This document shows, in pieces, positions 14,301 to 59,447 of a stretch of 64,000 nucleotides of DNA; within the stretch, counting starts at the first letter, position 1; each line of letters opens with the position of its first letter. The stretch is from Polynucleobacter sp. MWH-Spelu-300-X4 (lineage in GTDB: Bacteria; Pseudomonadota; Gammaproteobacteria; Burkholderiales; Burkholderiaceae): positions 1,364,001-1,428,000 of the forward strand of contig NZ_CP061294.1 in the NCBI RefSeq assembly GCF_018687515.1, written 5' to 3'. The notes below the pieces were generated by a model. That model made no database searches, was not told the origin of the DNA, and saw nothing but the letters and a program-made list of their open reading frames with translations. The position numbers and the translations under genes were made by a program.

Positions 14301-17300
14301 GTGTAAGTATTAGCACCACCCAAGGTCAAGCTACCAGTTGTTAACGTCAAACCACCAGTACCGCTCATCACACCACTGTATGTACCGTTAGCATTTGCCA
14401 AGGTCAAGGTGTTGCCATTCAAGTTCACAGCACCAGCACCAGACAATGAAGTAATTGTGTCACTAGCACCTAATGCATAAGTAGCACCAGATGCCACAGC
14501 TACCGATGTGCTATCAGACAAGCTACCAGTTACGCTCAACGTACCACCATTAATCGCTGTTGCACCGGTGTAAGTATTAGCACCACCCAAGGTCAAGCTA
14601 CCAGTTGTTAACGTCAAACCACCAGTACCGCTCATCACACCACTGTATGTACCGTTAGCATTAGTTAGTGTCAATGTATTAGCACCCAGCGCTGTATTAC
14701 CAGCACCAGACAATGAAGTAATCGTGTCACTAGCACCTAATGCATAAGTAGCACCAGATGCCACAGCTACCGATGTGCTATCAGACAAGCTACCAGTTAC
14801 GCTCAACGTACCACCATTAATCGCTGTTGCACCGGTGTAAGTATTAGCACCACTAAGCACAACAGTACCAGCACCAATCTTCGTGATGCCATAGCTACCT
14901 GAGATCACACCTGACAAAGTTAGGGTGTCGCCTGCGTTAGTTGCACCAAGGTTACTGTTAGCAGTCAAAATAATGTCACCCGCCAAGCTACTTGTGACAT
15001 CAGTTAATGTGCCGCCCGCCAAAGTAATTTGTTCTGCACCAATCGCCACGTTCTGCAGATCCAAAGTGGCCCCTGCTGCAACTGTAGTGCCACCTGCCGT
15101 TGTACCAAGTGCTGAACTATTAGTGGCAATGAGGCGACCAGCGTTAACGCTTGTTGTACCCGTGTAGGTGTTAGCACCACTTAAGGTAAGCGAACCACTA
15201 CCACGTTTAACCAATGCGCCACCGTTACCGCTAATCACACCAGAAATCGTTGTGTTATTGGCATCACCTACAGTTAATGTGTAGCTATTAAGGTTGATTG
15301 AACCTGCACCAGACAATGAAGTAATCGTGTCACTAGCACCTAATGCATAAGTAGCACCAGATGCCACAGCTACCGATGTGCTATCAGACAAGCTACCAGT
15401 TACGCTCAACGTACCACCATTAATCGCTGTTGCACCGGTGTAAGTATTAGTAGCAGATAACGTTAATGTGCCTGCGCCAGATTTAGTTAATTGACCTGAA
15501 CCAGCCAAGATCGCTGAGATAGTTGTTATGCCAGTTGCATTTGTGACATTGTAGTTAGCGCTTGTTAGTTGACCAGTCGTACCACTGATAGAACCACTTG
15601 ATAAGGTCACATTACCAACCGTGTCATTGAAACTTGCAACATCAAATGTACCCCCAGCAACATTCAATGCACCAGCATCAGCCAACACATTGCTTGCGCC
15701 TAACGCCAAGGTACCGGCATTAATGGTTGTACCACCTGTGTAAGTATTAGTACCGCTTAAGGTTTGTGTACCGCCACCTACCTTAAACCCGCCAGTACCT
15801 GCAATCACACCCGCATAAGTTTCGAAAGCATTAGTCACATTCAAGGTGCTACTACCAAGTGATACTTGGCCGTTACCACTCAATGAAACAATATTGGTTA
15901 CTGAGCTACCAACACCAACTAAAGAAGGATGGCTAAAGTTAACCCCATAGTTACCACCCCAGTTATTACCATTCACATCAGTAAATGTAATTTTTGCAGA
16001 AGTTGCAACACCAGTCAGATTCAGGGTAACTGAATAGTTAGTCAGCGTTGTAGTCGTTGTAAATTGAGTGCTGTTAGTACCAATCAGGGTATTAGAGGCA
16101 TCATATGCTTCAATCGTAATCTTGCCGGCACGTCCAGCAAACGTTGCATTTTGCTTACCATTGACAGATAAGGTTAACGCTGTGTAAACGTCTGCTAGCG
16201 CAATTGTTTTATACACAGAAACGTTAGCAGGGTATGAAAAGATCAATTCACCGTTATAAAACGCTACTGTATTAGTACTTGTAGCACTATATGTACCGAA
16301 ACCTGCGCCATTCGTTGCCCAGTTGCTGGTTGAAACAAAACTATCTGTCACCAAATTAGGTCCAAGCCCAGTTTTAGCTGTGACATCTAAAGTGCCGTTA
16401 TTAAGCAAGGCGCTATTTTCAATAGTGCCAGCTGCGCCCAGTACCAGCGTTGCACCTTGATTAACAGTTGTTAAACCAGAATAAGTATTTACGCCACTTA
16501 ATGTCTGTACACCACCAGAAACTGTAAGACCACCTGTGCCTGCAATTACGCCAGAAAAGGCATCATTAGCAGCTGTAATAGTGAGGGTTTTAGCCCCCAA
16601 AGTTACATTACCTGCACCAGCCAATGCCATGATGCTTGCACCCGCCGTCGTCGCACTGATATCCAATGTGCCTGTTGCAGTGACTTTGCTTGACGTTGCA
16701 ACTGAACCATCACCGCTCAAAATCACTGTGCCTGCGGTGATTACTGTTGCACCTGTGTAGGCATTAACACTGGACAATGTAAGAGTGCCAGCACCAGTCT
16801 TTATTAATTGACCTGAACCTGCCAAAATGGCTGAGATATTTGTAGTGCCAGATGCATTTGTAACATTGTAGTTAGCACTTATTAGTTGGCCAGTCGTACC
16901 AATGATAGAACCGCTTGATAAAGTCACCGTGCCGACTGTGTCATTGTAAGCACCCATTGCTAATGTACCGCCCGCAACATTTATTTCACCCACATCCGCC
17001 ATTGCATCGCTAGCACCAAGCGCCAAGATACCTACGTTAATTATTGTGCCACCTGTATATGTATTAGCGCCACTCAAAGTAGCTGAGCCAGCACCATTTT
17101 TCGTCAAACTACCTGTGCCTGCCAAAACGCCAGCTATAGTCAACGAAGTACCTGAAGTAGGCGCTACAGTTAACCCTGTACTTGCAGTAAACGTAGTACC
17201 ACTTGATGTATTAAGGTCTATAAGGTTGACGCTTGTTGCTGATAAAGCACCAGCAGTTAAATTGAGTGAACCCCCTGTCAATGTTGTGATATTCACGGTA

Positions 17301-20300
17301 CCCGCCTCAGCTAAACCGGACCTTACTGAAGGATTGAAAGTCACCGTTGTACCGGATGGAATTATCACCGCTTGCACATTAGATAAGTCAGGCACAACAC
17401 CTGTCACATTATTATTACTGGTCAATGCCCAGTTGGCAGGATTAAACCACTCACCCGTGGCACCGCCCACCCAAGTCACTGAAGATTGACGAGTAATCGT
17501 ACTTGCTGAGTTACCAACAAGCGTTACTTGATAGTTGTTACTGTTAACTAAAGTAACGGCATCCAATGTCACCACTTTATCGCCAGCACTCACATTCTTA
17601 TTTGCGTAAGTAATCGTTGCCGCAGTGATAGTGTCACCATTTTTCAAACCAGCACTCATGGCTGTTAAATCAGCACTCGAAGCAGCGTATGCCAAGCTAC
17701 CGTCATACACTTTAGTCACATTTGGTGCATTAATTGAAATTGTGTATTTATTTACTGTCAATCCACCAGCGGTGTAAGTAATGCTGTAGTTAGAGGTTGT
17801 AAATGTGCCGCCAGTTGCTACACTCGGTGTTAAAGCGTAAGTTCCGCCAGCGTTTGCTGTTGCTAAACCACCGCCATTTGTATCCGTAATGGTCACGCTG
17901 CCAATAGTTTCACTATTTTGTAGACCGGTAGAAGTAAACGCTGTTGAACCTGCACCATAGGTCTTAGCTGTGCCGTAAGTTTTGCTGTCGTTATTTGCAG
18001 TAATAGTCAACGCTCTGGCAGAGATCGTCACTGGTGCATTTGCCGCATTCAAGGTTGGCAATTGATAGTTACTTGTTAAGCCACCCGAGCTATCTGTAGC
18101 GTCACTCAAAGTAATAGCGCTAATATATTTGCTTGCAGCTGCCACGTTAGCATTATTAGCAACTGCCCCCGTGTAAGTAAGAGTTTCTAAACCTACGCCT
18201 GTAACAATTGTAACTGTGCCCGCACCCAAAGTCGTTGTGCCATCATAAGTTTTAGCTGCCGATAAACTCACCGTTGCTTTGTTAATCGTGCTTGCAGTGT
18301 TATCGGCATAAGTAATGCTGTAGTTATTACCGCTATTGCCATCGCTAATCGTTGCACTGCTTGTTGTTACTGTCTTATTAGCTGTGCCAGCATTTTTATT
18401 TGTAAAAGCTAGGGTAGCTGCGGTCACTGTGTCACCACTAACGCCTAATTGTGAGCTCAATGCAGTTAAATTAGCGGCAGTCGTTGTGTACGTTAACCCA
18501 CCATCATAGGTTTTAGTAATTGCTGGAGCAGTCAATGTCACAGCCTTAGCAGTGATTGTTGCAGTAGCTGAGCCAGAGATGGAAGCTGTGTAGTTAGCAC
18601 TGTCAGCACCAGTTAAAGTGCCACCGCTAATTGTAAGTGTCTTGTTTTGACCTGCATGCTTGTCACCAAATGCTGCGGTCACACTTGATACTGAAACCAA
18701 GTCATTGGTGATCTGACCTGATACCGTACCTGAGTTAGTCACAGTGGCTGTTGTTGTACCGTCATACGTCTTATCAGCAACAGTGAAACCAGAAATACTG
18801 ATGGTTTTTTGGTTCACAGTTAATGTGCCATTAGTAGCTGTCACGGTGTAACCAAGGGCAGCCATGCCACCATCAGTCAAGCTATAAGTACCCACTTTGA
18901 TGTTGCCTGAAGTAGAGTTCACACGGTTGCTAATTGCGTAAATTGGGCTATCGCCATTCACCAAACCGCTCACTGAGCCAGTGATTGATGACAAGCTATC
19001 GCCATATGTCATGGTGGCTGATGAAGTACTCATCGTCACTGCAATCGCTTCGCGGTAAATCGCATACTTGCCACTTGCACCTAAAGCCGTCGTAAAGTTG
19101 TTTGTGCCAACTTTACTCTTATAACGGAAGTTACCAGTCGCTGAACCTACATAACTTGTCACGCCAGCACTGCCGTTTACTGAACCTGTGTAAATCACTA
19201 CGCGACCATTAGTACCCGCTGTAATCGCAGGCATAGTCGATGGTGAAACCAACGCATAAGACTGAGTGTTATAAACCGTAGGCATTTGAGCCACAGTAAC
19301 GACATAACCAGCGCCAAATGTATTATTCACAGCAACGCTGGTAATCGTCTCGCCAGCATACGTCCATCCACTTGAGTTAGCTGAATAGTCAGCAACCAAG
19401 TCACCAGAATAGTCAGCACTGTTAATCCAGATATGTGAATTGAAAGAATTGCTTGCTAAGGTCTGCACAGAAGTTGAAACAGCTACACCACCATTAATAA
19501 TTACATTACCGCCAGTTGACGTACCCGCTGCAGTACTCGTACCTGCATTCAAGATGATTGCTGATGAAGAAGTATCAGCTGTCACCACTTGTTTAGCAAT
19601 GGTTAAATCGCCCGTGTAAGTGCTGATATTAATTGCACCAGATGTAGACACACCATTTGTAGCACCTACAGTACCGATGGTTAATGCATCTTTATCAGCA
19701 TAAGTTAAAGTGCTCACACCACTAGCTACCAAGGTGCCAATTGCGTTATTCGTGTTGTTATCTAAAGTCACGCTACCGCCAAGCAATAGCAAGTTAGATG
19801 CAACAACATAACCATTCGCACCGTCAGTTATAGCACCCGCGCCTTTTAGGGTGATCGTACTACCAGTTGCAGTTAAAGCTGCGTTAATTGTAATTGCGCC
19901 ACCATAGATGCTGATTGGTCCAGCAATCGTCTCCACAGCCGACATCGTAATGTCTCTAGTATTACCGTCTTTACCAATGGTTAAACCACCAAGACTGCTA
20001 ATTGCTTTGCTGAAGGTGTAAGCAGTAGTAAAGCTCGTAGATGCTGGCTGAATCACCAAACTGCCTACACCACTAAAACCACTTGTGCTAAAGCTAGGTG
20101 CATCATTTTCAATAATGATCTGACCAGCATTAATTGTTGTTGCACCGCTATAAGTATTCGCGCCTGACATCGTCAAGGCACCACTACCTTGTTTAACCAA
20201 TGCCCCAATACCACTCATGACACCGCTGTAAGTGGTGTTGGTGGCATCACCAACAGTCAATGTGTAGCTGTTAAGGTTGATGCTACCTGCACCTGCAATC

Positions 20301-23300
20301 GATGCAATCGTGTCGCTTGCACCCAAGTTATAGATTGCGCCAGATGCAACTGCCACAGCAGTTGCATCATTGAGTGAGCCAGTCACGCTTAAAGTACCTG
20401 CGTTAATGGCTGTTGTACCACTATAAGTATTAGCACCGCTTAATGTCAGCGTGCTTGCGCCAGCTTTAGTTAGGCTTGCTGTACCAGAGATGATGCCACT
20501 GATAGTTGAGGCAGCAGTATTAGTCACAGTAATACCTGTGTCTGCTTTGATAGCCGCAGCAGTTAAAGCACCAGTCGTGACACTGATATTTTTGAGTGAT
20601 GTAGTAACACCCACTGCACCAGTAAATGTCGTGTTACCTGTACCAGCTGCCACAGTGAGTGACTCCGTATTTGCTGTAGTACCATCCACTGCACCGCTGA
20701 ATGTCACTGCTGAGTTTGTTGTGGTGAATGTTGTGTCACCTGTTAACTGAACAGGGCCAGCATATGTCTGTGTGGTGGTCGTTGTTACGCCACCGCTTAA
20801 TTTAGCAGTACCTGTGGCAGCAGTTGCAAATGAGCCAGTTACAGATAGGTTATGTGCATTCGCAGCAGTACCCATGATGAAACCACCGATGTTATTCAAG
20901 GTGGTGTTTGCACCAATATTAGAAGTACCTGATGCAACTGTTTGACCAATCTTGACCGCAAAGTTAGTCGAGGCAGTTTGTACATTAGCTGCATTAACAG
21001 AACCGCCAATCGTCACTGCGCCTGTTTGAGTACCGGCGTTAAATGATGTGCCACCCACACCATTTCCAAATACAACTCGCGCATAACCATTACCCACTTG
21101 ACCAGTTTGTGTGCCACCGCCAGTTGAGGTCTGCGTCGCATTACCAGCAATCGTTACACCGCCCGTTACACCACCAACATAAGATGAACCGCCACCGCCA
21201 CCATTCCATGGTGTACCACCACCACCGCCATAATAACCACCGCCACCGCCACCGCCATGTTCGTAAGAACCGCTATAAACAGCATTGTCACCACCCACAC
21301 CAAGAGAGCCAGCAGTGCCAGTATATCCATTAGAAGAAGAAGCAGTACCACCTGATACTTGTGAACCACCCGTTGCCTCAACACCACCACCTGCAGAAGA
21401 ACTTATCCCAGTTAAACCACCACCTGCGCCGCCTGCACCTCCATTGTCAGCACCACCGCCACCGCCTGCTACGATGACACGATTTGAAAGCGCTGTTCCA
21501 CCAATACGAATATCAGTTGCACCACCACCTGAGCCTCCATTCATGCTACCGCCGCGACCACCACCATTCCAACCACCAGCGGTTCCAGCTGTACCAGCGA
21601 CGCTACCCCCTTGCCCTCCGACGTAAATACTAATTGTCTGACCAGCAGTCAAGGTATAAGTCCCTGAGGCGTAACCGCCATTACCAAAGACACTAGCAGA
21701 ATTTGCTGCAGCATTTCCACCTGAAGCACCCCAAACATAAAATGTATAGGTACCAGCAGACGCGGCTGTATATGTTTGAACTGCACCTGTGTAAGTGAAG
21801 TTACTTGTTGAACCCGCAACATATTGTCCCGTACCACCCAGGCCGAAGTAGTTCAATGCATAGGTACCACCCACGTTACCTGCTACATTGATGGCACCAC
21901 TACCACTCAACATAAACAAGTTATTAGCTCCAGCGCTTGTACCATTCACATTACCGCCAAAGGTAATGGCGCTATCAGTCGTCGAAAGCGAAATATTAGT
22001 CGCTGAAATCGTCACATTACCCGTGTATTCTTGTGTGCTGCCAGTAGCGATATTGCCACCTAAAGTCGTTGGGCCGTAAACCAGCAAGCTACCAGTCAAC
22101 GTGATGGCATTAGGCAAGGTAACAGCTGTGGCATTTGTGGTTTGACCAATAATCAAACTACCTAAACTACTAATTGGTGCATTAAACGTATATGCACTTG
22201 CAAAGCTAGAAGCGGCTGAACGCACCCACAATGTACCTGCACCTGTATAGCTACTTGATGTGTAAGTGAGTATGTCACGTTCAACAATTAAAGTACCTGC
22301 ATTAATGGTTGTGACACCCGTGTAAGTATTCGCACCAGCGAGTAGGATTGTGCCGGCGCCATTTTTAATTAAACTGCCGCCAGCCAATACACCTGCCACC
22401 GTCAACGTATCGCCAGAAACTGGGGCAACTGTGTAACCTGTGCTTGCAGTCAATGTCGTACCGCTTGATGTATTCAAGTTTGTGACGTTCACTGAGGTAG
22501 TTGATAAAGCACCGTTCGTCACTTCTAGCGAACCGCCAGTGAGTGTTGTGATATTCACCGTACCAGTTTGGGCTGTGCCTGAGCGACCAGCTACTGAGTC
22601 ATTAAATGTCACTGTGCTACCAGATGGAATCACAACTGCTGATACGTTGCTCAAATCAGGAATTGCACCTGCTGCGCTTGTACCTGTCACCGCCCAGTTA
22701 GCCGGGTTGAACCAGTCACCTGCGACCCCACCAATCCAAGTCACTGAAGCTTGACGCGTCACAGTACCGCTATTTGCCGCTGCGTAAGTTACGGTGTAGT
22801 TATTACCGTTATTGCCATCGCTAATGGTGACAGAACTTGGCGTCACTGTCTTTGAAGTGCCGACGTTTTTATCACTGTAAACCAAGGTAATCGCTGAGAT
22901 CGTATCGCCACCCACTAGAGCCGAGGCAATGGCTGCACGATCAGCTGCTTGAGTCGTATAAGTGAGTAAGCCATCGTAAGCTTTAGTGATGCTTGGAGCA
23001 GTCAATGTCACAGCCTTAGCAGTGATTGTTGCAGTAGCTGAGCCAGAGATGGAAGCTGTGTAGTTAGCACTGTCAGCACCAGTTAAAGTGCCACCGCTAA
23101 TTGTAAGTGTCTTGTTTTGACCTGCATGCTTGTCACCAAATGCTGCGGTCACACTTGATACTGAAACCAAGTCATTGGTGATCTGACCTGATACCGTACC
23201 TGAGTTAGTCACAGTGGCTGTTGTTGTACCGTCATACGTCTTATCAGCAACAGTGAAACCAGAAATACTGATGGTTTTTTGGTTCACAGTTAATGTGCCA

Positions 23301-25372
23301 TTAGTAGCTGTCACGGTGTAACCAAGGGCAGCCATGCCACCATCAGTCAAGCTATAAGTACCCACTTTGATGTTGCCTGAAGTAGAGTTCACACGGTTGC
23401 TAATTGCGTAAATTGGGCTATCGCCATTCACCAAACCGCTCACTGAGCCAGTGATTGATGACAAGCTATCGCCATATGTCATGGTGGCTGATGAAGTACT
23501 CATCGTCACTGCAATCGCTTCGCGGTAAATCGCATACTTGCCACTTGCACCAAGAGCTGTTCTGCCAGCAGTGCCTTCTTTAGCGTTGTAACGGAAGTTA
23601 CCAGAACCTGAACCTACATAATCAGTTACACCTGCGCTGTCATTCACTGAACCCGTGTAAATTACTATGCGACCATTGGTGCCTGCGGTGATTGTTTTGC
23701 CACTCGCAATCGTAACGTTACCACCAGTCGATGTGCCTGCTGCTGCTCCACTAGCAGCAATCAATACAATTGCACTGCTAGTTGTGTCGGTCGTGCTAAT
23801 GTTTTCTGAAACAGTTAAGTCACCCGTCACTGTACTAATTCGAATAGCACCAGTTGCTACGATACCTGTTGGATTCACCACGCCAACGGTTAAAGCATTG
23901 CTATCAACATAGCTGAGTGAGCTGATATCTTGCGCAGCTAAGGTGGCAACGTTATTCGTCACAGTGGTTAAACTCACTGCACCACCCATTAACGCAAGCT
24001 TGTCAGCAGTAATTGCACCTGTACCGTTCACCGAACCTGAACCGTACAGCCAAATTGTGTTAGCACCAGTTGCGGTCAAGGCAGCGTTAATAGCAATATT
24101 CGCACCGTAGATTTTTACAGCACCAGCGACACTTTGCGCTGCAGAGATTGTGATATTTGCCGTATTACCTGATTTGCCGATGGTTAAACCGCCAAGACTA
24201 GTTGTTGGAACACTAAAGGTATAAGCACCGGTGAAGCTAGCACCTGCAGATTGAATCACCAATGTGCCCGCACCGCTAAAGCCACTTGAAGTGATGCTTG
24301 GCACATTGTTCTCAAATACCAAGCTACCTCCATTAACCACTGTCGCACCTGTGTACGTGTTCGTACCAGTTAAGGTTGTTGTGCCTGTACCTGATTTAGT
24401 TAGTAACAAGCTTCCACTACCGTTTTGAATCACACCACTGAATGTTGTATCAGTATTTAGACCACCAACTGTCAATGTTTTAGCACCAGCAGTTCCTGTG
24501 GTAATCGTACCTGCACCCGCTAAGGAGCCTAGTGTTTCAGCATAGCGCAAGTCAAGCGTTGCACCACTTGCTACAGTCACAGCACTGCTATCGTCAATCG
24601 AAGTGCCGCTGGTATTTGCAGAAATTAAAGTACCTGCGTTAATGGCTGTTGTACCACTATAAGTATTAGCACCGCTTAATGTCAGCGTGCTTGCGCCAGC
24701 TTTAGTTAGGCTTGCTGTACCAGAGATGATGCCACTGATAGTTGAGGCAGCAGTATTAGTCACAGTAATACCTGTGTCTGCTTTGATAGCCGCAGCAGTT
24801 AAAGCACCAGTCGTGACACTGATATTTTTGAGTGATGTAGTAACACCCACTGCACCAGTAAATGTCGTGTTACCTGTACCAGCTGCCACAGTGAGTGACT
24901 CCGTATTTGCTGTAGTACCATCCACTGCACCGCTGAATGTCACTGCTGAGTTTGTTGTGGTGAATGTTGTGTCACCTGTTAACTGAACAGGGCCAGCATA
25001 TGTCTGTGTGGTGGTCGTTGTTACGCCACCGCTTAATTTAGCAGTACCTGTGGCAGCAGTTGCAAATGAGCCAGTTACAGATAGGTTATGTGCATTCGCA
25101 GCAGTACCCATGATGAAACCACCGATGTTATTCAAGGTGGTGTTTGCACCAATATTAGAAGTACCTGATGCAACTGTTTGACCAATCTTGACCGCAAAGT
25201 TAGTCGAGGCAGTTTGTACATTAGCTGCATTAACAGAACCGCCAATCGTCACTGCGCCTGTTTGAGTACCGGCGTTAAATATTAGAAGTACCTGATGCAA
25301 CTGTTTGACCAATCTTGACCGCAAAGTTAGTCGAGGCAGTTTGTACATTAGCTGCATTAACAGAACCGCCAA
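11360..25372 (-). CDS. Giant TPS exoprotein, C-terminal part (frame-split from 25275-44588)
   Basis: About 4,670 codons continue the giant exoprotein after a frame break at about 25277. No ribosome site or sensible start exists here; the first residues before the FNAGTQTGAV sequence are out-of-frame readings of the duplicated DNA. Content from N to C: beta-strand repeats of the LTLSGANTYSGTTAINAGTL type, an MBG/YDG cassette (about 23545-22740), a second ALK/LTK-type glycine-rich module (about 21840-21060), a long MBG/YDG cassette (about 19075-17440), a jelly-roll-like insert (about 16370-15890), an array of identical 89-residue repeats (14853-12629) and a C-terminal domain. It ends NCDSSKSIDGSCDK, a cysteine pair near the C-terminus and no beta-barrel, as expected for a TPS passenger. 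Confidence 0.85.
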   Translation of the reverse strand: MAVLLMQLMYKLPRLTLRSRLVKQLHQVLLIFNAGTQTGAVTIGGSVNAANVQTASTNFAVKIGQTVASGTSNIGANTTLNNIGGFIMGTAANAHNLSVTGSFATAATGTAKLSGGVTTTTTQTYAGPVQLTGDTTFTTTNSAVTFSGAVDGTTANTESLTVAAGTGNTTFTGAVGVTTSLKNISVTTGALTAAAIKADTGITVTNTAASTISGIISGTASLTKAGASTLTLSGANTYSGTTAINAGTLISANTSGTSIDDSSAVTVASGATLDLRYAETLGSLAGAGTITTGTAGAKTLTVGGLNTDTTFSGVIQNGSGSLLLTKSGTGTTTLTGTNTYTGATVVNGGSLVFENNVPSITSSGFSGAGTLVIQSAGASFTGAYTFSVPTTSLGGLTIGKSGNTANITISAAQSVAGAVKIYGANIAINAALTATGANTIWLYGSGSVNGTGAITADKLALMGGAVSLTTVTNNVATLAAQDISSLSYVDSNALTVGVVNPTGIVATGAIRISTVTGDLTVSENISTTDTTSSAIVLIAASGAAAGTSTGGNVTIASGKTITAGTNGRIVIYTGSVNDSAGVTDYVGSGSGNFRYNAKEGTAGRTALGASGKYAIYREAIAVTMSTSSATMTYGDSLSSITGSVSGLVNGDSPIYAISNRVNSTSGNIKVGTYSLTDGGMAALGYTVTATNGTLTVNQKTISISGFTVADKTYDGTTTATVTNSGTVSGQITNDLVSVSSVTAAFGDKHAGQNKTLTISGGTLTGADSANYTASISGSATATITAKAVTLTAPSITKAYDGLLTYTTQAADRAAIASALVGGDTISAITLVYSDKNVGTSKTVTPSSVTISDGNNGNNYTVTYAAANSGTVTRQASVTWIGGVAGDWFNPANWAVTGTSAAGAIPDLSNVSAVVIPSGSTVTFNDSVAGRSGTAQTGTVNITTLTGGSLEVTNGALSTTSVNVTNLNTSSGTTLTASTGYTVAPVSGDTLTVAGVLAGGSLIKNGAGTILLAGANTYTGVTTINAGTLIVERDILTYTSSSYTGAGTLWVRSAASSFASAYTFNAPISSLGSLIIGQTTNATAVTLPNAITLTGSLLVYGPTTLGGNIATGSTQEYTGNVTISATNISLSTTDSAITFGGNVNGTSAGANNLFMLSGSGAINVAGNVGGTYALNYFGLGGTGQYVAGSTSNFTYTGAVQTYTAASAGTYTFYVWGASGGNAAANSASVFGNGGYASGTYTLTAGQTISIYVGGQGGSVAGTAGTAGGWNGGGRGGSMNGGSGGGATDIRIGGTALSNRVIVAGGGGGADNGGAGGAGGGLTGISSSAGGGVEATGGSQVSGGTASSSNGYTGTAGSLGVGGDNAVYSGSYEHGGGGGGGYYGGGGGTPWNGGGGGSSYVGGVTGGVTIAGNATQTSTGGGTQTGQVGNGYARVVFGNGVGGTSFNAGTQTGAVTIGGSVNAANVQTASTNFAVKIGQTVASGTSNIGANTTLNNIGGFIMGTAANAHNLSVTGSFATAATGTAKLSGGVTTTTTQTYAGPVQLTGDTTFTTTNSAVTFSGAVDGTTANTESLTVAAGTGNTTFTGAVGVTTSLKNISVTTGALTAAAIKADTGITVTNTAASTISGIISGTASLTKAGASTLTLSGANTYSGTTAINAGTLSVTGSLNDATAVAVASGAIYNLGASDTIASIAGAGSINLNSYTLTVGDATNTTYSGVMSGIGALVKQGSGALTMSGANTYSGATTINAGQIIIENDAPSFSTSGFSGVGSLVIQPASTSFTTAYTFSKAISSLGGLTIGKDGNTRDITMSAVETIAGPISIYGGAITINAALTATGSTITLKGAGAITDGANGYVVASNLLLLGGSVTLDNNTNNAIGTLVASGVSTLTYADKDALTIGTVGATNGVSTSGAINISTYTGDLTIAKQVVTADTSSSAIILNAGTSTAAGTSTGGNVIINGGVAVSTSVQTLASNSFNSHIWINSADYSGDLVADYSANSSGWTYAGETITSVAVNNTFGAGYVVTVAQMPTVYNTQSYALVSPSTMPAITAGTNGRVVIYTGSVNGSAGVTSYVGSATGNFRYKSKVGTNNFTTALGASGKYAIYREAIAVTMSTSSATMTYGDSLSSITGSVSGLVNGDSPIYAISNRVNSTSGNIKVGTYSLTDGGMAALGYTVTATNGTLTVNQKTISISGFTVADKTYDGTTTATVTNSGTVSGQITNDLVSVSSVTAAFGDKHAGQNKTLTISGGTLTGADSANYTASISGSATATITAKAVTLTAPAITKTYDGGLTYTTTAANLTALSSQLGVSGDTVTAATLAFTNKNAGTANKTVTTSSATISDGNSGNNYSITYADNTASTINKATVSLSAAKTYDGTTTLGAGTVTIVTGVGLETLTYTGAVANNANVAAASKYISAITLSDATDSSGGLTSNYQLPTLNAANAPVTISARALTITANNDSKTYGTAKTYGAGSTAFTSTGLQNSETIGSVTITDTNGGGLATANAGGTYALTPSVATGGTFTTSNYSITYTAGGLTVNKYTISINAPNVTKVYDGSLAYAASSADLTAMSAGLKNGDTITAATITYANKNVSAGDKVVTLDAVTLVNSNNYQVTLVGNSASTITRQSSVTWVGGATGEWFNPANWALTSNNNVTGVVPDLSNVQAVIIPSGTTVTFNPSVRSGLAEAGTVNITTLTGGSLNLTAGALSATSVNLIDLNTSSGTTFTASTGLTVAPTSGTSLTIAGVLAGTGSLTKNGAGSATLSGANTYTGGTIINVGILALGASDAMADVGEINVAGGTLAMGAYNDTVGTVTLSSGSIIGTTGQLISANYNVTNASGTTNISAILAGSGQLIKTGAGTLTLSSVNAYTGATVITAGTVILSGDGSVATSSKVTATGTLDISATTAGASIMALAGAGNVTLGAKTLTITAANDAFSGVIAGTGGLTVSGGVQTLSGVNTYSGLTTVNQGATLVLGAAGTIENSALLNNGTLDVTAKTGLGPNLVTDSFVSTSNWATNGAGFGTYSATSTNTVAFYNGELIFSYPANVSVYKTIALADVYTALTLSVNGKQNATFAGRAGKITIEAYDASNTLIGTNSTQFTTTTTLTNYSVTLNLTGVATSAKITFTDVNGNNWGGNYGVNFSHPSLVGVGSSVTNIVSLSGNGQVSLGSSTLNVTNAFETYAGVIAGTGGFKVGGGTQTLSGTNTYTGGTTINAGTLALGASNVLADAGALNVAGGTFDVASFNDTVGNVTLSSGSISGTTGQLTSANYNVTNATGITTISAILAGSGQLTKSGAGTLTLSATNTYTGATAINGGTLSVTGSLSDSTSVAVASGATYALGASDTITSLSGAGSINLNSYTLTVGDANNTTISGVISGNGGALVKRGSGSLTLSGANTYTGTTSVNAGRLIATNSSALGTTAGGTTVAAGATLDLQNVAIGAEQITLAGGTLTDVTSSLAGDIILTANSNLGATNAGDTLTLSGVISGSYGITKIGAGTVVLSGANTYTGATAINGGTLSVTGSLSDSTSVAVASGATYALGASDTITSLSGAGNTALGANTLTLTNANGTYSGVMSGTGGLTLTTGSLTLGGANTYTGATAINGGTLSVTGSLSDSTSVAVASGATYALGASDTITSLSGAGAVNLNGNTLTLANANGTYSGVMSGTGGLTLTTGSLTLGGANTYTGATAINGGTLSVTGSLSDSTSVAVASGATYALGASDTITSLSGAGAVNLNGNTLTLANANGTYSGVMSGTGGLTLTTGSLTLGGANTYTGATAINGGTLSVTGSLSDSTSVAVASGATYALGASDTITSLSGAGAVNLNGNTLTLANANGTYSGVMSGTGGLTLTTGSLTLGGANTYTGATAINGGTLSVTGSLSDSTSVAVASGATYALGASDTITSLSGAGAVNLNGNTLTLANANGTYSGVMSGTGGLTLTTGSLTLGGANTYTGATAINGGTLSVTGSLSDSTSVAVASGATYALGASDTITSLSGAGAVNLNGNTLTLANANGTYSGVMSGTGGLTLTTGSLTLGGANTYTGATAINGGTLSVTGSLSDSTSVAVASGATYALGASDTITSLSGAGAVNLNGNTLTLANANGTYSGVMSGTGGLTLTTGSLTLGGANTYTGATAINGGTLSVTGSLSDSTSVAVASGATYALGASDTITSLSGAGNTALGANTLTLTNANGTYSGVMSGTGGLTLTTGSLTLGGANTYTGATAINGGTLSVTGSLSDSTSVAMAGSAVWDLRSIQTISSLVMTSGNSIVNTTGVPSGLTVIGTADINDIATYGSQTYNGTVTLRGGNVIGGNAPGTGPYMSGGTLNPVSLISNGGNITFNGTINAGLQSALYKRSLTIEAGAGSIVFNQTIGTRGTLAGIADGNIYEFTVKAQNIYINADIITNEIQSYLGHVWIGDNGSNGLFRTLLSEDPSVTFGNYEMTGGTVYAGGIDDATLNTHTLSVLAVSNWSGATDPVITFGNPIGATKALYSITAVTGIQDIASGKSFSDTPVNASQYAGTINIMANVTTASAQTYTSNNFTLGGSSSIANNNIVFTTNHADITFNIGLAPPAFALNNGTTSVTFTLGGSNVNTAAVTAMNAVGIRPQGLFDLKSINLGGSLHSAFNKVMSDVASNSSVTGDVEVGKFEQVNCDSSKSIDGSCDK
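12629..14853 (-). repeat. 267-bp tandem repeat array, about 8.3 copies
   Basis: The same anchor sequence recurs at exactly 267-bp steps (12631, 12898, 13165, 13432, 13699, 13966, 14233, 14500, 14767). Each unit encodes 89 residues containing SLTLGGANTYTGATAINGGT. Inner units are identical or nearly so; the first and last share a variant block (NTALGANTLTLTNANG) while inner units have AVNLNGNTLTLANANG. A detached further copy of the anchor lies at 15370. The period is a multiple of 3, so copy number can change without breaking the frame. Confidence 0.95.
18524..19081 (-). repeat. 558-bp intragenic repeat, copy A (MBG/YDG module)
   Basis: The same sequence occurs at 22994-23551, offset 4470 bp. 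It encodes an MBG domain (ATMTYGDSLSSITGSVSGLV) and a YDG domain (VADKTYDGTTTATVTNSG). Flanking sequence diverges on both sides. The near-identical DNA suggests recent duplication or gene conversion. Confidence 0.9.
20389..21044 (-). repeat. 656-bp intragenic repeat, copy A
   Basis: The same sequence occurs at 24625-25280, offset 4236 bp. It encodes the block from FNAGTQTGAVTIGGSVNAA to SGTTAINAGTL. Together with the 558-bp repeat it shows that a segment of about 4.2-4.5 kb of the exoprotein has been duplicated and has since diverged outside these blocks. Confidence 0.9.
22994..23551 (-). repeat. 558-bp intragenic repeat, copy B
   Basis: Second copy of the MBG/YDG block found at 18524-19081. 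The boundaries are where the flanks (ITKAYDG versus ITKTYDG side, and the RTALGASGKYA side) begin to differ. Confidence 0.9.
24625..25280 (-). repeat. 656-bp intragenic repeat, copy B
   Basis: Second copy of the block at 20389-21044. Its right end coincides with the frame-breaking 127-bp tandem duplication, so the disruption arose at the edge of this long repeat. Confidence 0.9.
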
Positions 25373-25404
25373 TCGTCACTGCGCCTGTTTGAGTACCGGC
25401 GTTA
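25151..25404 (-). repeat. Perfect 127-bp tandem duplication that breaks the giant frame
   Basis: Unit 1 is 25151-25277 and unit 2 is 25278-25404, identical base for base. Because 127 is not a multiple of 3, the upstream frame meets a TAA exactly at the unit junction (codons AAT ATT TAA). The frame that remains open downstream is the one obtained if a single copy is kept. Either a real recent mutation or an assembly error in repetitive DNA. Confidence 0.95.
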
Positions 25405-28400
25405 AACGTGGTAAAGCTTGCAAGCACAATGCGAGCATAACCATTACCTGCTTGGCCAGTTTGTGTGCCACCGCCAGTTGAGGTCTGCGTCGCATTACCA
25501 GCAATCGTTACACCGCCTGTTACGCCACCAATATAGGACGAGCCACCGCCGCCGCCATGGAAGCCTGAACCACCACCGTAGTAACCACCACCACCAGCAG
25601 CGCCACCCCAGCTCCAACCATTACTATCCGCACCAACACCTAAAGAACCTGCAAAATATAATGTTCCCGATTGAGCTGCCCCTGATGCACCACCTGCAGA
25701 TTGCGTACCACCAGCACCAGCACCATTACTTTCAGTAATAGCATTACCAGCACCACCTGTGAGTCCACCACCATAACCGCCAGTTGTTGGCACCGTATAT
25801 AGATAACCAGCACCACCACCACCGCCAGCAACAATCACACGATTGGTCAACGCAGTTCCACCAACACGAATATCTGTTGCGCCGCCACCGCCGCCGCCGC
25901 CAGAACCCGAATTAATAGCAGTACCGCCGCCATTCCAACCGCCAGCTGCAGAACCAGTCGTCAGACCTGATGCAGCACTATCTGCACCCGTACCACCGAC
26001 ATAAATTGAAACCGTTTGACCAGCGCTTAATACATAATTACCGTAAGAGTAACCACCCATACCACCGCTTGCATTAGCTTGAGCTGAATCGCCACCTTGC
26101 GCACCCCATGTATAGAATGTGTAAGTGCCAGCATAAGTTGCTGTGAAGGTTTGCACTGCACCTGTATAAGCAAAGTTAGTAGTAGAGCCCGCTTGATACT
26201 GTCCTGTACCACCCAAACCAAAGTAATTCAATGCATAGATATTACCCACACTACCTATCACATTGACAGAACCAGTTCCGCTCAATATATACAAGCTATT
26301 ACCGTTTGCGATTGTGCCATTCAAATTACCGCCAAAGGTAATACTGTTGCCTGTTGAGCTATTACCCATGGTCGATAGTGAAACGCTAGATGCTGAGATG
26401 CTCACATTGCCCGTGTATTCTTGCGTGCCACCTGTAGTGATGTTTGCGCCCAATGTTGTTGGTGCATTCACAAGCAAGTTACCGTTAATATTAATCGCGC
26501 CAGACAAAGTCACCGCTGTGGCATTGCCAGTTTTACCAATCGTTAAGCCACCCAAATTACTGATTGTGGCATTGAAGGTATAAGGAGAAGCAAAGTTTGC
26601 AGCAGCTGATTGCACCACTAAAGTACCTGCACCAGTAAAGCCGCTAGTTGCAAATGTCAAGGTGTCACGTTCAATCACCAACTGACCGGCGTTAATAGTT
26701 GTTGCACCAGTGTAGGTGTTAGCACCTGTGAGCGTGATGGTGTTAGATGCATTTTTAATTAAAGCACCAGAACCTGAAATCACTTTGTCATAACTAAAGT
26801 CATCGCTACGGTTAAAGGTCAAAGTTGCGTTATTAGTTACATTACCAGCGCCCAAAGTACCGACTGCCCCACCTGCACCTACCTGTAACACACCTGCTGA
26901 AATCGTTGTCGCACCATATGTATTAGCACCAGTCAATATCAAGGTACCCGCACCAGTCTTAGTTATGCTAAAGGCACCAGAAATAACACCAGACATGGTA
27001 AAGGTATCTACAGCATTTGCCACGCTGATCGTACTATTAGCTGATAGTGTCACATCCCCAGCTAAGCTACTAGTTGCATCAGCTAAGGTACCACCATTCA
27101 AAGCAATCGCTTCTGCACCTACTGTTACACCAATTAAGTCAAGCGTTGCGCCACTAGCTACTGTCGTTCCATTTGCAGTCGTACCTAGACCACCATTATT
27201 GGTAATATTCAAAGTACCTGCACTGACAGTAGTCGCGCCAGTATATGTATTAGCACCAGCTAATGTCACAGCACCTGTTTGGCTAGCCCCGTTAATCGTC
27301 AGGTTGTAAGCACCATCCACAACCCCGTTGACTATTAAGTTATTACCAGAAGTTGCTGCCAAACCACTGTTAGCAGTCATGGTAATGCCGCGATTAGCAC
27401 TCAATGTAAATGAGCCTGCCGCTTGAAGCACACCGCCACCAAGCGTGATTGAGCTTGCTGTTGTTGAAGATGGCACAGCACCCAAGCTTCGATCCGTTGT
27501 AATAGACAAGATACCTGCAGAAATAGCCGTGCTAGCCGTATAAGTGTTAGTGCCAGATAAAACCAATGTACCTGCACCCAGTTTAGTTAAAGCACCACTA
27601 CCACTTACCACGCCACCTAAAGTGATATTACCTGTTGCAGTAATTGAAGTATCAGCCGCCAATGCAACCGTACCAGCATAACTTGCCGCAGTCACTGAGC
27701 TATTAATCAAAGCACCACCTGAGCTGATACCTGTGCCACTCAAGGTCAAGGCATTTGTATTAGCCACTGTTTGACCATTTAAATCAAGTACTGCACCATC
27801 AGCCACTGAAACTGCACCAGCAGAATCACCTAGGGAAGATGCATTACCCAGTTTTACAGTACCTGCTGAAATAGTAGTGCCGCCTGCATAGGTGTTAGCG
27901 CCATTGAGTACTAAAGCCCCAGCACCTTGTTTGGTGATGGTCGTTGTATAGCCAGTTGCATTGGCAATCGCGCCAGTAATCGTACTAGTGGTAGCAGCTG
28001 AGTTAACGGTCAGAGCTCGTAAGCCACTGGTTGCGCCTGTAATGTTCACTGCACCAGCGCCAGCGTTAATATTGAGACTTGGGTTTCCACCATTCACCGA
28101 TACCTGCATCTTAAAGGCTGTTGTTCCCATGCCCACAGAGTTTTGACCTGTAAATGTCCAGTCAACATTCCCAACGGTACCTGTAGTGGTGCCAATATAG
28201 TTACCCATACCTACATCTGGCGTAGCGCCATGATTATTCCAAGCTAATACGGTCTGAACTGAACCCGAGGTGATGTTATGAACCTGGAATGACCCGTACG
28301 TACCCGCCACAGGCGTATCATTGTAGTCATACGCTGACGAACTACCTGAAGATAGCCCCCCAGCATTACTGATAGTTTGAGTGTAATTTAATGGCCACAA

Positions 28401-31400
28401 CTCCAAATAGCCTGTGAAACCTGAGCCTGTGATCACACCACTAGCTTTACTAGCAATACCCGCAGTTTGGTTAGAGCTCACCACCATGTTATTGACGATT
28501 TTTTGCAACACTAAATTATTTGACACATCAGGGATGCGTAAATCAGCCGCAGTTAAGTTATTTGCCCATGCGTCAAACGTCACCTGAACCCAGTAAGGTG
28601 TGCCGCCATAAGTCACTTCCATACGGTAAGTGATGCGGGTAATAGGCGTGCTCAACGAGCCAGAATTATCCACACTGTAGACAATCGAATTACCAGAGCG
28701 TGTTGGCGTAGTTGTTTCATACAACAAGAAATTTGAGCCCGCGACACCAGTGATTGCACCACCAATAGTCACACCACCACTTGTTGAGTTCAGACCAATA
28801 TCACCACCAACACCCAAATTACCAGTGTAAATTTGTGCGCCAGTTGTCCACACATTGCCATATAAGTTAGCTGCACCGCTCACTGACAAGCTAGTAAGGC
28901 GAGTTGAAGAAGTGCCAACAGTTGAACCTAAAGTTAAGTCACCTGTATTCGTCACAGTTAAGCCAAAAGCACCCGCAATCACACCGTTTAAGGTTAATGC
29001 GCCCGTACTCTTAATAGTGGTATCAGCCGCTAGGGTAATCGCACCAGCATAAGTAGAAGCAGTACTGCTTGAGTTATATAAAGCACCACTACCGCTAACA
29101 CCAGAACCACTTAATGTGATTGGCACTAATGTTGTGATGCTATAACCAGATAAATCTAATGCTGCGCCATCAGCAACTGTGACACCAGTAGCCGCAGTAC
29201 CTAATGGTGAATTAGCACCGCTGCTAGAAGCACCTAATTTCAAGGTGCCTGCTGAAATAGTCGTCAAGCCTGTGTATGAGCTATTACCTGATACGGTTAA
29301 TACTCCAGCACCAAGTTTTGTCACGGTAGCCGATGTACCAGAGATCGCACCACTATAAGTTGATGCGCCAGACTGAGTTACAGTCAGTGCACGACCAGTG
29401 GCTAAAGTAATTGCGCCAGCGCCTGTTAAGCCTGTCGTCGTAATCCCAATATTACCTGTCGTGGCGTTTGTTGTAGTTAAGCCGCCAGTCAACGTGACTG
29501 CAGCACCGTAGATATTAATCGGACCAGAAATACCGATGTCATTGCTAATCGTGACTGCTGAATTCGATGTTGAACTTGCGTTACCAATCGTTAAGCCAGT
29601 GAGATTTGCAATGCTGTTAATCGTGATTGCATTAATTGAGCCAGTACCGGCAAAGTTAGTGCCTGAACCGCTCCAGGTAAATGTTCTCGCAGTGCCAGCG
29701 CTATCTGTGAATGCATTACCAAATGGCGCAAAGGTCAAAGTACCCGTACTTGTAATCGTAGTCGTACTGCTATAAAAGTAATCGCCTAGGATCGTGATAG
29801 AACCACTACCAACGTTGAACACTTGTGCGGCACCATTCGCAATAGCTACATCATAACCAGTACCACTACCGACATTACCAGCTAACCAAATAGAACCGCC
29901 ACTGGTTGTCCAAGTACCTTGCGTGTCAATCGCATTTCCGTTAGCACCACCGCCAGCGCCAGCCGCACCATTCCCGACTGTTAATCCATTCCAAGTGGTT
30001 GATGTTGCACCGCCACCCGCCCAAATATGCCCACCATTGGTGGTGTACGTACCAGCTAGCGTTGTGCCAAAGCCATTACCACCATCCGACTCAGACCAGA
30101 AAATAATATTGAGCTTACCAGCACCTATTGCCGACTTAACAACAAGGCTTGAATCCCAAAAATCAATACGCGCAGTAGATTTTAAAGTCAGGGTTGAGTC
30201 TAATGCACCATTCTTTTGAATAGTTAAACCTCTTGCCGTAATCGTGCCAGCGTTATCAATCATTGCATCACCAGTAAATGTCATACCAGTAATCGTATTC
30301 ACTGCTCCGATACTAAGGGCTTGATTATTTTTAATAGAAAGTGAGCCAATACCACTAGTTGCAATCGTGCTAAAGGTATTGCTTGCATTCGTTGCAGTGT
30401 AGCTACCCGCACCGATAAACGCTACGCCATAACTCGCTGCGCCAACAGCACCAGACAATGTCATGGTGCCTGCACCACCAATATATGAAGCAGAGCCAAC
30501 AGTAATCGCACCGGTATAAGTCGCTGCATTCGTCGTACTTGAGTTAATCAATGCGCCGTTGTTACCAACGCCATAACCATTAATTGTTAGGGCTTCAACT
30601 GTTCCTAAAGTGAACCCATTCAGATCTAATGTACCGCCAGCAGAGATAGTAGTGCCGGCTGCCGTTGTGCCTAGTGGTGTATTGGTTGCATCTCCAGCAA
30701 CACCAAGTCTTAGCGTACCGCCACTAATCGTTGTGAGTCCGGTATAAGTGTTGGCGGCAGAAAGTGTTTGTGTGCCTGCACCAGATTTTGTGAGGGCAAC
30801 AGGGCCAGCAATCACACCGCTAAAGTCATAGCTACCACTCGCATTGGTAATAGCAACCGTACTGCTTGAGGTCACTGTAATACCAGCATCAGATGTATCG
30901 GTTAAACCACCAGCGCTTAAGGTGACGGAAGCAGCCGTGATGCCCGTCGTGCCATTATAGGTGCCAATATTTAATACGTTGGTTGTCGTAAAGCTTAAGC
31001 TACCTGTACCAATGTTTGCTGCCAATGATGAAATTGCGTTGCTTGCGCTATTCAATGTATAGCTTTGATTGTTGCTTAATAAGGCCAGACCATAAGCGGT
31101 CATTGCGCCTGTGATTGAAGGCGCTTTAGCTTTAATAGAAATGTAGCCGCTGGTTGTATTAGCGGTCACTGTACCGCTCCAGCTGATACCAGTTGTGGCA
31201 GCACTTGCAGGGTTAGCAGAATCTGCAATCGCAAAGTATGGGGCTGGGCTACCACTAACTACATTGCTTACAGCATTTGCAAGCGTTGTGACGGTATCCA
31301 GTTTTGAACCTTGGAACGTCACCGAACCGTTGACCGCAGAAACAGCCCTAGAAATTGAATAAATACCGTAATCAGTCGTGGTGGCGCTCGAAGTATAGCC

Positions 31401-34400
31401 AGACAAAGTCACATTACCGTTACTTGATGTTATTGACCCAATATTTAGGTAAATACCATGGCCAGCAGTTGCATAGCCGATGATATTCACATCAGTTCCA
31501 GCAGACACCGAACCATACCAAGCATCTTGGTAATACGCGTAATTTTGCCCGAGCGCAGAAACGGTTACTGAACCTAGAGTGGCGGTAATTGGTAGACGAA
31601 TGATAGCGCCACCATAAGAAGCGGCATTGCTTAAACCACTCATCACGATATTGCCAGTTTCAGAGGTGATTCCACCGCCAGTCCCAGTGGCATAGGTGAG
31701 ATAAAGACCAATGCCTGACGAAGAAACCCCTTTGAGCGTGATATCACCCTTAGCTTGAATCGTCACACAACCGCAATAAAGGGTAATACCAGCAGAAATG
31801 TTCGCCCAGTCAGTAATCGCACCGGCCGCATGATTCGCATAACCCGTCATGCTCACTGCACCGTTATAGCTTCGAACCACTTGCGCACCACCCCAAAGGA
31901 TGATGCCATGTCCTTGCTGATTAGCTGTACTTAAACCAGCCGCAGCACCATTGGCATTAACAGTAATATCACCATAGGCAATAATCTTTGTGCTCGTACC
32001 ATCCAATCTTAAAGCAGCACCATCAATCGCATTATAGGTAGAGGTCGAGTTAATCGTAATTGAGCCGCCGGCTGTTGGCGTGGTCGTATCATTACCCGCC
32101 ACCAAGCCACCGCCAGATATGTACATACCATACCCTACTGCCGCAGTAGCGGTAATATTAATATTGCCAGCTGTTGATTGAGTGAAACGGCTATCAATTT
32201 GGTAGAAAGACCAACTAGCATTACCGCTACCTGTAATAGCATTAATGATCACATCGCCAACTGCTTTTACTTGTCCAGAACCTACGAACCTCACACCATT
32301 ATCAGTCGTTAAAGCAGTTCCATTTAGAGTCATTGCCCCGTACGAAATTAAAGATCCACCATTTAGATAAATACCCTGTTGTGAGGCTCCTGTAGCGGTA
32401 ATGCTTAATGTGCCACCAGCAGTGGGTGTAGCTGTTGGCGTGGCCGTATTGCTAGTTGCATAAATACCGCCTGTAGTATTGGTATATAAACCACCATTCG
32501 TACCACTCGCAGTAATCGAGATATTGCCCGTTGACGCTGAATTAGCCTTAGTCGATTGAATAAAGCTATTGTCATACATCGTTAGACCCCAAGAACCTTG
32601 AGTCCCACTAATTGTAATATCTGAAGCCGATTGCATTTTAGCGCCTGTGCCATGCATGTAGAACGCATGCTCACCAATAGCGGTTGCCGTCACCGAGATT
32701 GCGCCAAAAGCCACTACTGAAGATGTATCCTGGCGCAAGCCCTTGTAACCAGAGGTATTGCCAGTCGCATTGATGGTAATAGTACCGCCAGAGATCATGC
32801 TCGTAAATGTGGTGCTATTACCAGCAGCAACCGTTTGCGAACCTAGATACATCCCGTTGCTACCAGTACCCGTCAGGCTGATATTGCCACCCGTCGACCA
32901 CACGGTGCCATTTCCAAGATACAAACCCCATCCACTACCGCCACTTGCACCGATACCGCTAATCGTAATATCGCCACCCGCTTTAATCGTGGTACCACCG
33001 TTATAAATCAAAACACCATAGTAACCAGAATCAGAAGTACGACCCATCATGGTGATAGCGCCAGCACCCGCATCAATCGAGCCTGAGCTTACAATCGTGA
33101 TGCCATCAACGTTATCCTGATAGCCCGGCACCCAAATAGCGCCATTCCAACCAAGCCAGTCACCGCCAGAATTTGAGGCATAGCCTGCTATACAAGTTTT
33201 AGCGGCCGCACAACCTGTAGTTATGTCACCTGTACCACCACGTAAAGTAATATTGCCACCATAAGTGGCAATGCTAGCTGTACTAGCAAGCAAAATCGCG
33301 CCGCCACCGGTGTTATCCACATCAGAATATAAATTGACCGTCAGCGGTTTGCCTGAAGCGCCATTAATTGCCTGATTAATCATGATATCTTTACCGGCCA
33401 TGATGGTCAGGGTATTGCTACCAGCACCATTGACGGTGATACCACCACTGGCACTATACATATACACATGTTCTGACGCTTTAATTAGGGTAGTACTGTT
33501 TGCGCCTGTCACAGTTAGAGATCCCGTGGAATCATCCATGTAAATATCAGCTGATGTACCACCCATCGCCAACAAAGTCACATTACCATTTACGGTTAGA
33601 TTACTTCCAATTTTAATATTCTGCGTATTCGCTAAAGAACCGATGCTTAAACCACTAATACCTGTAATTGCAAACCACCCTGTATTTACACTCTGACCGA
33701 AACCTGTGGTTGAAGCACCAGAAGCATCCCAAGTGAATGTGCCTGTAGTTTTAATTGTAGGATTGATACCACTAAAGTAGTACTTGTCATAATTGATAGT
33801 GAGGTTACTCGAGCTACTTGCTACATAACTTGAACCTGTTTTTGAGCCAAGCGCCCAAGCGGCTTCAATTTGCCAAATGCCATTAGCAATACCTGCTGAG
33901 CCCGACAATGTTTGACCACCTAGTAATTTAATATCCCCACCATTGGCCAATATTTCTACGGCGCTTCTATAAACAGCGTCATAATTTGAGCCAGTATTTT
34001 TCTGAGACGTTAAGACACTAATGCCACCACCAACACCCGTTGCATAAAGATTAAGCGGGGAATTTGTCTCAACCTCTATACCCCAAGTATCGGCACTGGT
34101 GCCCGTGGCGATGCCAACCAATTTAATTGCATTTGCCGTGGTATTCGCTGAAGTAATCGTGGTGGCGTATGAGCTATTCAAGGCAAAAAGAATGCCTGAA
34201 CCATAAGTAGAGGTATTCGTTGTTTGACTATAACCTTCAATGTAAATAGTGCCTGTACCAGAGTTAATTAACCCAGCACTATTCAAATAGTAAATACCAA
34301 AACCTGCCCCGCCGGTAGCAGCGCCGACACTCACAGCATAAGACTTACCTTTGATACTGATATTGCCGCCGCCAGATGCTAATGAAAGTACTTTATCAAT

Positions 34401-46749: not shown

Positions 46750-46762
46750 AACAAAATAACCT

Positions 46763-58505: not shown

Positions 58506-59447
58506 CTACAAAATTTTTAGATGTTCACTAATTCGATTTATCAAATCAGAAAAACTTGGCTGGCCTTTGTAATATAGGCTAGCTACTTTTTGATATTCAG
58601 ACTCAAATAACTTTCTGTCTTCAATATCAGCCAAAAGAAAAGCTGGATTCTGAATAATGATCAAATTATCTGACCTAGAAAACCTCTCCCTCTTTCTAGC
58701 TTGATACCGATCAGTTTTAATAAACTCTAGGACAGGCTGATAACCCAAAAGGCAATATACATCGTAGTAATGTCTTAAAAAATTCTTAGGAAACCCCTTG
58801 CCGTCTTTGTACTGGCGATACTTTGTAGAAATAGTTTGTAGCTTTTCCACAAAGGTGTACTCAGGCAAATAACACAAGACATTTTTAACCCTATTGTCAT
58901 CAATATCTTTAACATACTGAACCGCATAATCATATGCCCATGATGAAATATCTACAGGTTTGTTGGGCGCCGTATCGTCAAAGCCGAGCTCCAATAACAC
59001 ACCATCCTTTAATCCACGCAACGATGGTGTTGCAGATGGGTAATTTAAGCGAACCCCACCACTGCGCATTTTTTCTTCATCATCAAATGCATGGTCTCGT
59101 ACTACATCTTGTATGCCAGAAATTTTCAAGTTGCTGGCAACCCAATCGTAATATTCAAATCTAGATTTTATGTGCGCTTCTTTATCTTGATTTTTACCAA
59201 CCTTAACATTCATGCCTGTTGGCGGTTCAATGCGGATATCAATATCTTCAGAAAAACGATGGATTAGCCCAAATCCTTTTGATAGTGAAGTTCCACCCTT
59301 CAATTCAAATGCAAATCCTTGTTGCTTCAATCCCCACAAACAATGCATGATCCAATAGTCTTTTTCAACCAAGGTGGGATCAATATTCATTGCATCCGAT
59401 ACTGTCGCAATCAGATCTTTGAAATTTTTATGGTCATGCAACAGCAT
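58506..59447 (-). CDS. abiEii: AbiEii-type nucleotidyltransferase toxin
   Basis: About 313 residues from the ATG at 59447, which overlaps the stop of the antitoxin gene by 1 nt (TAATG). The nucleotidyltransferase motif is clear: ELKGGTSLSKGFGLIHRFSE followed by DIDIRI. AbiEii toxins transfer nucleotides, shown for relatives to act on tRNA, and stop growth during phage infection or when the antitoxin is lacking. The C-terminal half is mostly helical. It is the second gene of a type IV-like toxin-antitoxin pair beside a tRNA integration site. Confidence 0.88.
   Translation of the reverse strand: MLLHDHKNFKDLIATVSDAMNIDPTLVEKDYWIMHCLWGLKQQGFAFELKGGTSLSKGFGLIHRFSEDIDIRIEPPTGMNVKVGKNQDKEAHIKSRFEYYDWVASNLKISGIQDVVRDHAFDDEEKMRSGGVRLNYPSATPSLRGLKDGVLLELGFDDTAPNKPVDISSWAYDYAVQYVKDIDDNRVKNVLCYLPEYTFVEKLQTISTKYRQYKDGKGFPKNFLRHYYDVYCLLGYQPVLEFIKTDRYQARKRERFSRSDNLIIIQNPAFLLADIEDRKLFESEYQKVASLYYKGQPSFSDLINRISEHLKIL

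What the first reader, a model, noticed from the sequence alone, without database searches (positions are those of the whole stretch)
25151..25404. A perfect 127-bp tandem duplication splits an 11,033-residue reading frame
Two identical 127-bp units lie head to tail. The stop (TAA) of the upstream frame is made by the junction itself. The span 11360-44588 is 33,229 bp; minus 127 it is 33,102 bp, exactly 11,034 codons, and the two frames then coincide. So the gene was a single giant gene very recently. The change may be a reversible on/off switch by repeat loss and gain, a fresh null mutation, or an assembly error in repetitive DNA.
Basis: seen in the sequence. Interest (0 to 1): 0.85.

Follow-up and report, generated by a model that had tools for sequence, protein, structure and literature searches.

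The report
Assembly overlap splitting a giant gene
The perfect 127-base duplication that cuts a giant surface-protein gene in two is most likely not in the bacterium but an overlap left over from joining the ends of the genome assembly, so the gene is probably whole.

Summary
The duplication is in the record as described: two identical 127-bp units, 256 bp of period 127. They split one reading frame of a giant two-partner-secretion surface protein. Most likely it is an assembly artefact. The unit length equals a usual top k-mer of SPAdes. The unit is exactly the last 127 bases of a 655-bp exact repeat whose other copy lies 4.2 kb away in the same gene, and the duplication stops on the very base where that repeat ends. 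De Bruijn contigs overlap by one k-mer at just such repeat ends; only 138 of 33,103 placements in the gene would give that coincidence. The record is one contig starting at dnaA, with one 16S gene; in 463,745 bases checked (26% of the genome), repeated 127-mers occur only in this window. A toy circular genome gives the same signature in 40 of 40 runs. Against it: none of 16 single-contig relatives shows the same fault in the stretches scanned, and no reads or assembly record were at hand. A real duplication keeps about 13%. Nothing found speaks positively for a switch.

The parts
25153..25279 (.). First 127-bp unit, in the register that ends at the repeat end; last 127 bases of the second copy of the 655-bp repeat
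25280..25406 (.). Second 127-bp unit, the probable untrimmed overlap; its last base is the last base of the long repeat
24625..25279 (.). Second copy of the 655-bp exact repeat (the exact match runs one base further, to 25280)
20389..21043 (.). First copy of the 655-bp exact repeat, with a single unit at its end
25275..44588 (-). Upstream piece of the giant gene: TPS (filamentous haemagglutinin) N-terminal domain, PATR repeats, PA14
11360..25372 (-). Downstream piece of the giant gene: PATR repeats, YDG domains
44995..46803 (-). TpsB-type outer-membrane transporter (POTRA_2 and ShlB domains), open frame
25275..25277 (-). TAA that ends the upstream frame; inside the first unit, in frame only because of the 127-bp shift

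Best explanation
The second 127-bp unit is an untrimmed assembly overlap. A de Bruijn assembler of the SPAdes type with k = 127 left a contig whose two ends were the same 127-mer, namely the branch point where a 655-bp exact repeat of the giant gene ends. The contig was closed into a circle and rotated to dnaA without removing one copy, so the branch-point 127-mer now stands twice in a row inside the gene. Shown: the unit length, the exact coincidence with the repeat end, the start of the record at dnaA, and the absence of other repeated 127-mers in the sampled part of the genome. Inferred: the assembler, the k value and the joining. In the cell there is then one uninterrupted gene for a secreted two-partner-secretion surface protein of about 11,000 residues.
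For: Unit exactly 127 bp and perfect. The unit is the last 127 bases of a 655-bp exact repeat and ends on its last base. It is one of 6 right-branching 127-mers in the window. Only 69 (right ends) or 138 (both ends) of 33,103 placements in the gene would coincide so, two bases of slack allowed. One contig, one SSU rRNA gene, dnaA as first gene. Repeated 127-mers: 4,045 positions in the window, none in 399,745 bases of 20 stretches elsewhere in the genome. Toy circular genome with a planted repeat, with the walk round the circle imposed by me: exactly 127 extra bases and a duplicated repeat end in 40 of 40 runs. Published: contig-end repeats of k-mer length, with 55, 77 and 99 bp as examples (PMC8116208, passages incl. 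figure legend); SPAdes with 127 as largest k (PMC5478533, PMC8530038, passages); a phage contig with 127-bp direct terminal repeats (PMC9009655, passage); SPAdes contigs of freshwater bacteria with overlapping ends circularised in silico (PMC6794327, passage). The perfect tandem periods found in relatives' giant-gene stretches are multiples of three (11 rows); 127 is not.
Against: No reads and no assembly method for this record were seen. The fault does not recur in the scanned stretches of 16 single-contig relatives (775 kb), though at least one of them (G119, by its length TUM22923) was a Unicycler hybrid assembly and the stretches do not always cover the whole gene. One large freshwater isolate project that includes Polynucleobacter used SPAdes with a top k of 129, not 127 (PMC12381374, passage). 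The exact 267-bp array in the same gene (6.8 perfect copies) would be hard for short reads alone, so other data may have gone into the assembly.
Confidence: 0.87

Rival explanations
1. A real, recent and fixed tandem duplication (slippage or microhomology) in the sequenced strain, leaving a truncated 6,437-residue product: a fresh null mutation, perhaps arisen in culture.
For: Perfect identity fits a recent event; 2 bases of matching flank would serve as microhomology. Surface-protein genes of this kind do decay in the genus: in G107 the TpsB match is broken by stops and the region holds many shorter frames.
Against: Leaves both the length of 127 and the exact end at the repeat boundary (0.2-0.4% of placements) to coincidence. 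It is the one break found in a frame of about 11,000 codons, with TpsB open.
Confidence: 0.08
2. A reversible on/off switch: gain and loss of the 127-bp unit toggles the giant protein between full length and truncated.
For: The unit is not a multiple of three, the gene encodes a surface protein, and direct repeats of this size can be lost again (general knowledge).
Against: No variant with one unit was found: the protein search listed no independent copy, and no relative has a comparable frame-breaking duplication in the stretches scanned. It explains neither the length nor the boundary.
Confidence: 0.04
3. Out-of-register gene conversion between the two module copies: DNA copied from the first repeat to its end rejoined the second repeat 127 bases too early.
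For: The two modules are mosaics of exact tracts (558 and 656 bp) and diverged stretches (blastn pieces of 70-94% identity), as gene conversion would leave. It would partly explain the end at the repeat boundary.
Against: Does not explain the length of 127, and needs rejoining on about 2 bases.
Confidence: 0.01

Closest known systems
k-mer-length end overlaps of de Bruijn assemblies (SPAdes and similar)
   Same: Perfect repeat whose length is a usual k value, at a graph branch point, in a record that was closed and rotated
   Different: Usually seen at contig ends; here inside the record, after rotation. The k value is inferred, and the CheckV legend names 55, 77 and 99, not 127
Two-partner-secretion exoproteins (TpsA) and the Polynucleobacter giant gene region
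   Same: TPS N-terminal domain, beta-strand repeats, TpsB neighbour, very long frame; a giant gene of up to 42 kb is in print for P. asymbioticus (PMC5644125, passages)
   Different: Split in this record only by the 127-bp duplication; whether it sits in the same genomic island as the published one was not tested
Phase-variable surface-protein genes
   Same: Direct repeat whose unit is not a multiple of three inside a surface-protein gene
   Different: No variation seen, only two copies of a long unit, and the site coincides with an assembly branch point

Membership tests
k-mer overlap artefact | Length equals an assembler k value | tested here: met
   127 exactly; 127 as largest SPAdes k in PMC5478533 and PMC8530038. 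The k used for this record is not known
k-mer overlap artefact | Unit is a branch-point k-mer, i.e. ends exactly where a longer exact repeat ends | tested here: met
k-mer overlap artefact | Record closed and rotated, so that original contig ends lie inside it | tested here: met
   single contig, dnaA first
k-mer overlap artefact | Reads contain one unit only | not testable with these tools
   no reads held
Two-partner-secretion exoprotein | TPS N-terminal domain | tested here: met
   TIGR01901, E 8.9e-20, residues 103-177 of the upstream piece; Pfam showed no such domain there
Two-partner-secretion exoprotein | Adjacent TpsB with POTRA and FhaC-type barrel | tested here: met
   POTRA_2 and ShlB in 44998-46803
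Two-partner-secretion exoprotein | N-terminal signal sequence | tested here: inconclusive
   looks present by eye; no predictor was run
Phase-variable switch | Copy number varies between cells or strains | tested here: inconclusive
   no independent copy of this gene among the 120 listed of 257 protein hits; cells not testable
Phase-variable switch | Unit not a multiple of three | tested here: met
   127 = 1 mod 3

The most novel reading that the evidence does not exclude
The duplication is real and reversible: loss or gain of a 127-bp unit at the end of a module repeat toggles a freshwater bacterium between a surface protein of about 11,000 residues and a 6,437-residue truncated form.
Probability: 0.04. 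Interest if true: 0.55.

Novelty: not a real feature. Interest (0 to 1): 0.12.

Why it matters
It warns that split giant genes in closed genomes may be joining faults, and gives a simple test that needs no reads: a perfect duplication whose length is a usual k value, ending exactly at the end of a longer exact repeat, in a record rotated to dnaA. Were the duplication real, it would be an unusual large-unit switch of a giant surface protein.

Tried and rejected
Named relatives of the site: two scans of genome contigs gave 40 and 4 pattern matches, none confirmed (the tool says records very near the window may be left out). Independent copy with one unit: a protein search with the last 738 residues of the upstream piece scored 835 candidates, 257 passed, 120 were listed; the only near-identical one is the window's own piece (P0001, 100%; 3 member sequences on 1 contig, members not inspected); the others reach at most 63% identity, one of them (P0012) being the window's downstream piece. 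Recurrence: 0 of 16 single-contig relatives with a match show a 127-bp duplication in the 775 kb scanned. Paper with the genome's length: one unrelated hit. Papers on Polynucleobacter assembly: searches gave no paper that I could tie to this genome. Papers on 127-bp SPAdes overlaps: searches; most hits seen as listings only. Naming the genus through a transporter protein gave only Burkholderiales-level names among the listed hits. The idea that the junction creates the stop was rejected.

In the first toy run the unit did not equal the end of the planted repeat in some of the 20 trials (the number was not printed). The rerun, which counts chance extension of the repeat, agreed in 40 of 40. The toy imposes the walk that an assembler could take; SPAdes itself was not run.

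Mended: the wording, the coverage of relatives' genes, the assembler of PMC9009655 (not seen), the k of 129 in PMC12381374 (added). The odds of the main readings add up as given; the 'about 10%' for a real duplication in the first summary is now 13%, the sum of the three rivals.
Full report
What is there. The record holds two identical 127-bp units head to tail; the period-127 stretch is 25151-25406. On the minus strand they separate ORF 25275-44588 (6,437 aa) from ORF 11360-25372 (4,670 aa). The TAA is not made by the junction: it lies inside the first unit and stands out of frame in the other two copies.

What the gene is. The upstream piece starts with a signal-like sequence (by eye) and a filamentous-haemagglutinin N-terminal domain (TIGR01901). 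The searched pieces carry PATR beta-strand repeats; the downstream piece has YDG domains and the upstream one a PA14 domain. Next to it lies an open TpsB gene with POTRA_2 and ShlB domains. This is a giant two-partner-secretion exoprotein. Of 151 genomes of the genus searched (own included; an even draw from a larger group), 42 match a 666-aa piece of it. The longest open frames holding a match in relatives are 17,033 (G062), 15,362 (G037), 15,344 (G124) and 14,866 (G120) residues; other relatives have much shorter frames, down to a few hundred.

The genus is probably Polynucleobacter. This is inferred: contig G119 has 1,860,127 bases, the published size of Polynucleobacter sp. TUM22923 (PMC10353399, abstract start and passages). 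A giant gene region is in print for that genus (PMC5644125, passages).

The clue. The unit is present a third time, at 20915-21041. The stretch 24625-25280 equals 20389-21044 exactly, and 25278-25406 equals 20915-21043 exactly. So the first unit is the end of a 655-bp exact repeat, and the second unit ends on the very base where the repeat ends. Directly beyond it the two places are 27% identical over 55 ungapped bases, although the modules are similar again further on (62 exact bases at 21102 and 25456). In a graph of 127-mers this unit is a branch point, one of 6 right-branching 127-mers (26 positions) in the window. Of 33,103 possible placements of a unit in the gene, 69 would end at such a repeat end, or 138 counting left ends too, with the two bases of slack allowed. 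For a duplication unrelated to assembly this is a 0.2-0.4% coincidence, on top of a length that happens to be a usual top k-mer.

How it most likely arose. Assemblers of the de Bruijn type output contigs that overlap by one k-mer at branch points (general knowledge). The CheckV authors describe contig-end repeats of k-mer length, naming 55, 77 and 99 bp, left when a circular template is broken (PMC8116208, passages incl. a figure legend). SPAdes with 127 as the largest k is in print (PMC5478533, PMC8530038, passages), and so is a phage contig with 127-bp direct terminal repeats (PMC9009655, passage; I did not see the sentence naming its assembler). Closing of SPAdes contigs with overlapping ends in silico is described for freshwater Methylophilaceae (PMC6794327, passage). 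Another freshwater project that includes Polynucleobacter used a top k of 129 (PMC12381374, passage), which would not fit.

The present record is one contig of 1,785,745 bases with a single SSU rRNA gene, and its first gene is dnaA, so its original ends lie somewhere inside. In 463,745 bases (window plus 20 sampled stretches, 26% of the genome) the repeated 127-mers are 4,045 positions in the window and none in the 399,745 sampled bases. A walk that starts on the large unique edge after the repeat and runs round the circle would end with the repeat, and so carry the same 127-mer at both ends. Rotation without trimming then gives what is seen. In a toy with random sequence, where I imposed this walk, the result had exactly 127 extra bases and a duplicated repeat end in 40 of 40 runs.

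Tests against it. If the fault were a habit of one laboratory, other closed genomes of the genus might show it. I scanned stretches around the matches in all 16 single-contig relatives with a match (385 kb, periods 20-2999; 390 kb, periods 25-699). The stretches do not always cover the whole giant gene. None shows a 127-bp duplication. The perfect tandem repeats found are 144, 273 (four places), 327, 330, 567, 1551, 1671 and 1824 bp: 11 rows, all multiples of three, after dropping multiples of a shorter period and one run of N. The relatives' stretches gave no row. In the sampled own genome one place has overlapping periods of 28 and 32. So recurrence is not shown; a one-off fault is not excluded by this, and at least one relative (TUM22923) was assembled by Unicycler from short and long reads. 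The exact 267-bp array in the same gene (6.8 perfect copies) would be difficult for short reads alone; how it was resolved is unknown.

Rivals. A real fixed duplication (8%), a reversible switch (4%) and out-of-register gene conversion (1%) remain possible because no reads or assembly record were held. The genus shows signs of true decay of such genes: in G107 the TpsB match is broken by stops and the neighbouring region holds many shorter frames (not analysed further). No independent copy of this gene with one unit was found.

Verdict.

Noticed in passing
window 12624-14853: A 267-bp array of 8.4 copies in the same gene, 6.8 of them perfect; its copy number may be unreliable if the assembly rests on short reads.
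   Followed up: partly
window 18524-21043 and 22994-25406: Two large modules of the giant gene share exact tracts of 558 and 656 bp amid stretches of 70-94% identity, which suggests recent gene conversion between modules.
   Followed up: partly
window 54688-57423: A second, smaller PATR-repeat protein (911 aa) near the giant gene.
   Followed up: no
window 58506-63998: An AbiEii-type protein, a DUF6161 protein and a type I restriction subunit lie together, possibly a defence cluster.
   Followed up: no
L032 and L033 (G107), and G107:C1:558630-560315: The TpsB match is broken by stops and the region next to it holds many shorter frames; looks like true decay of such a system.
   Followed up: partly
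L025:14855-14947 (G037): A run of N in the giant-gene region of a single-contig relative, a sign that these genes are hard to assemble.
   Followed up: no
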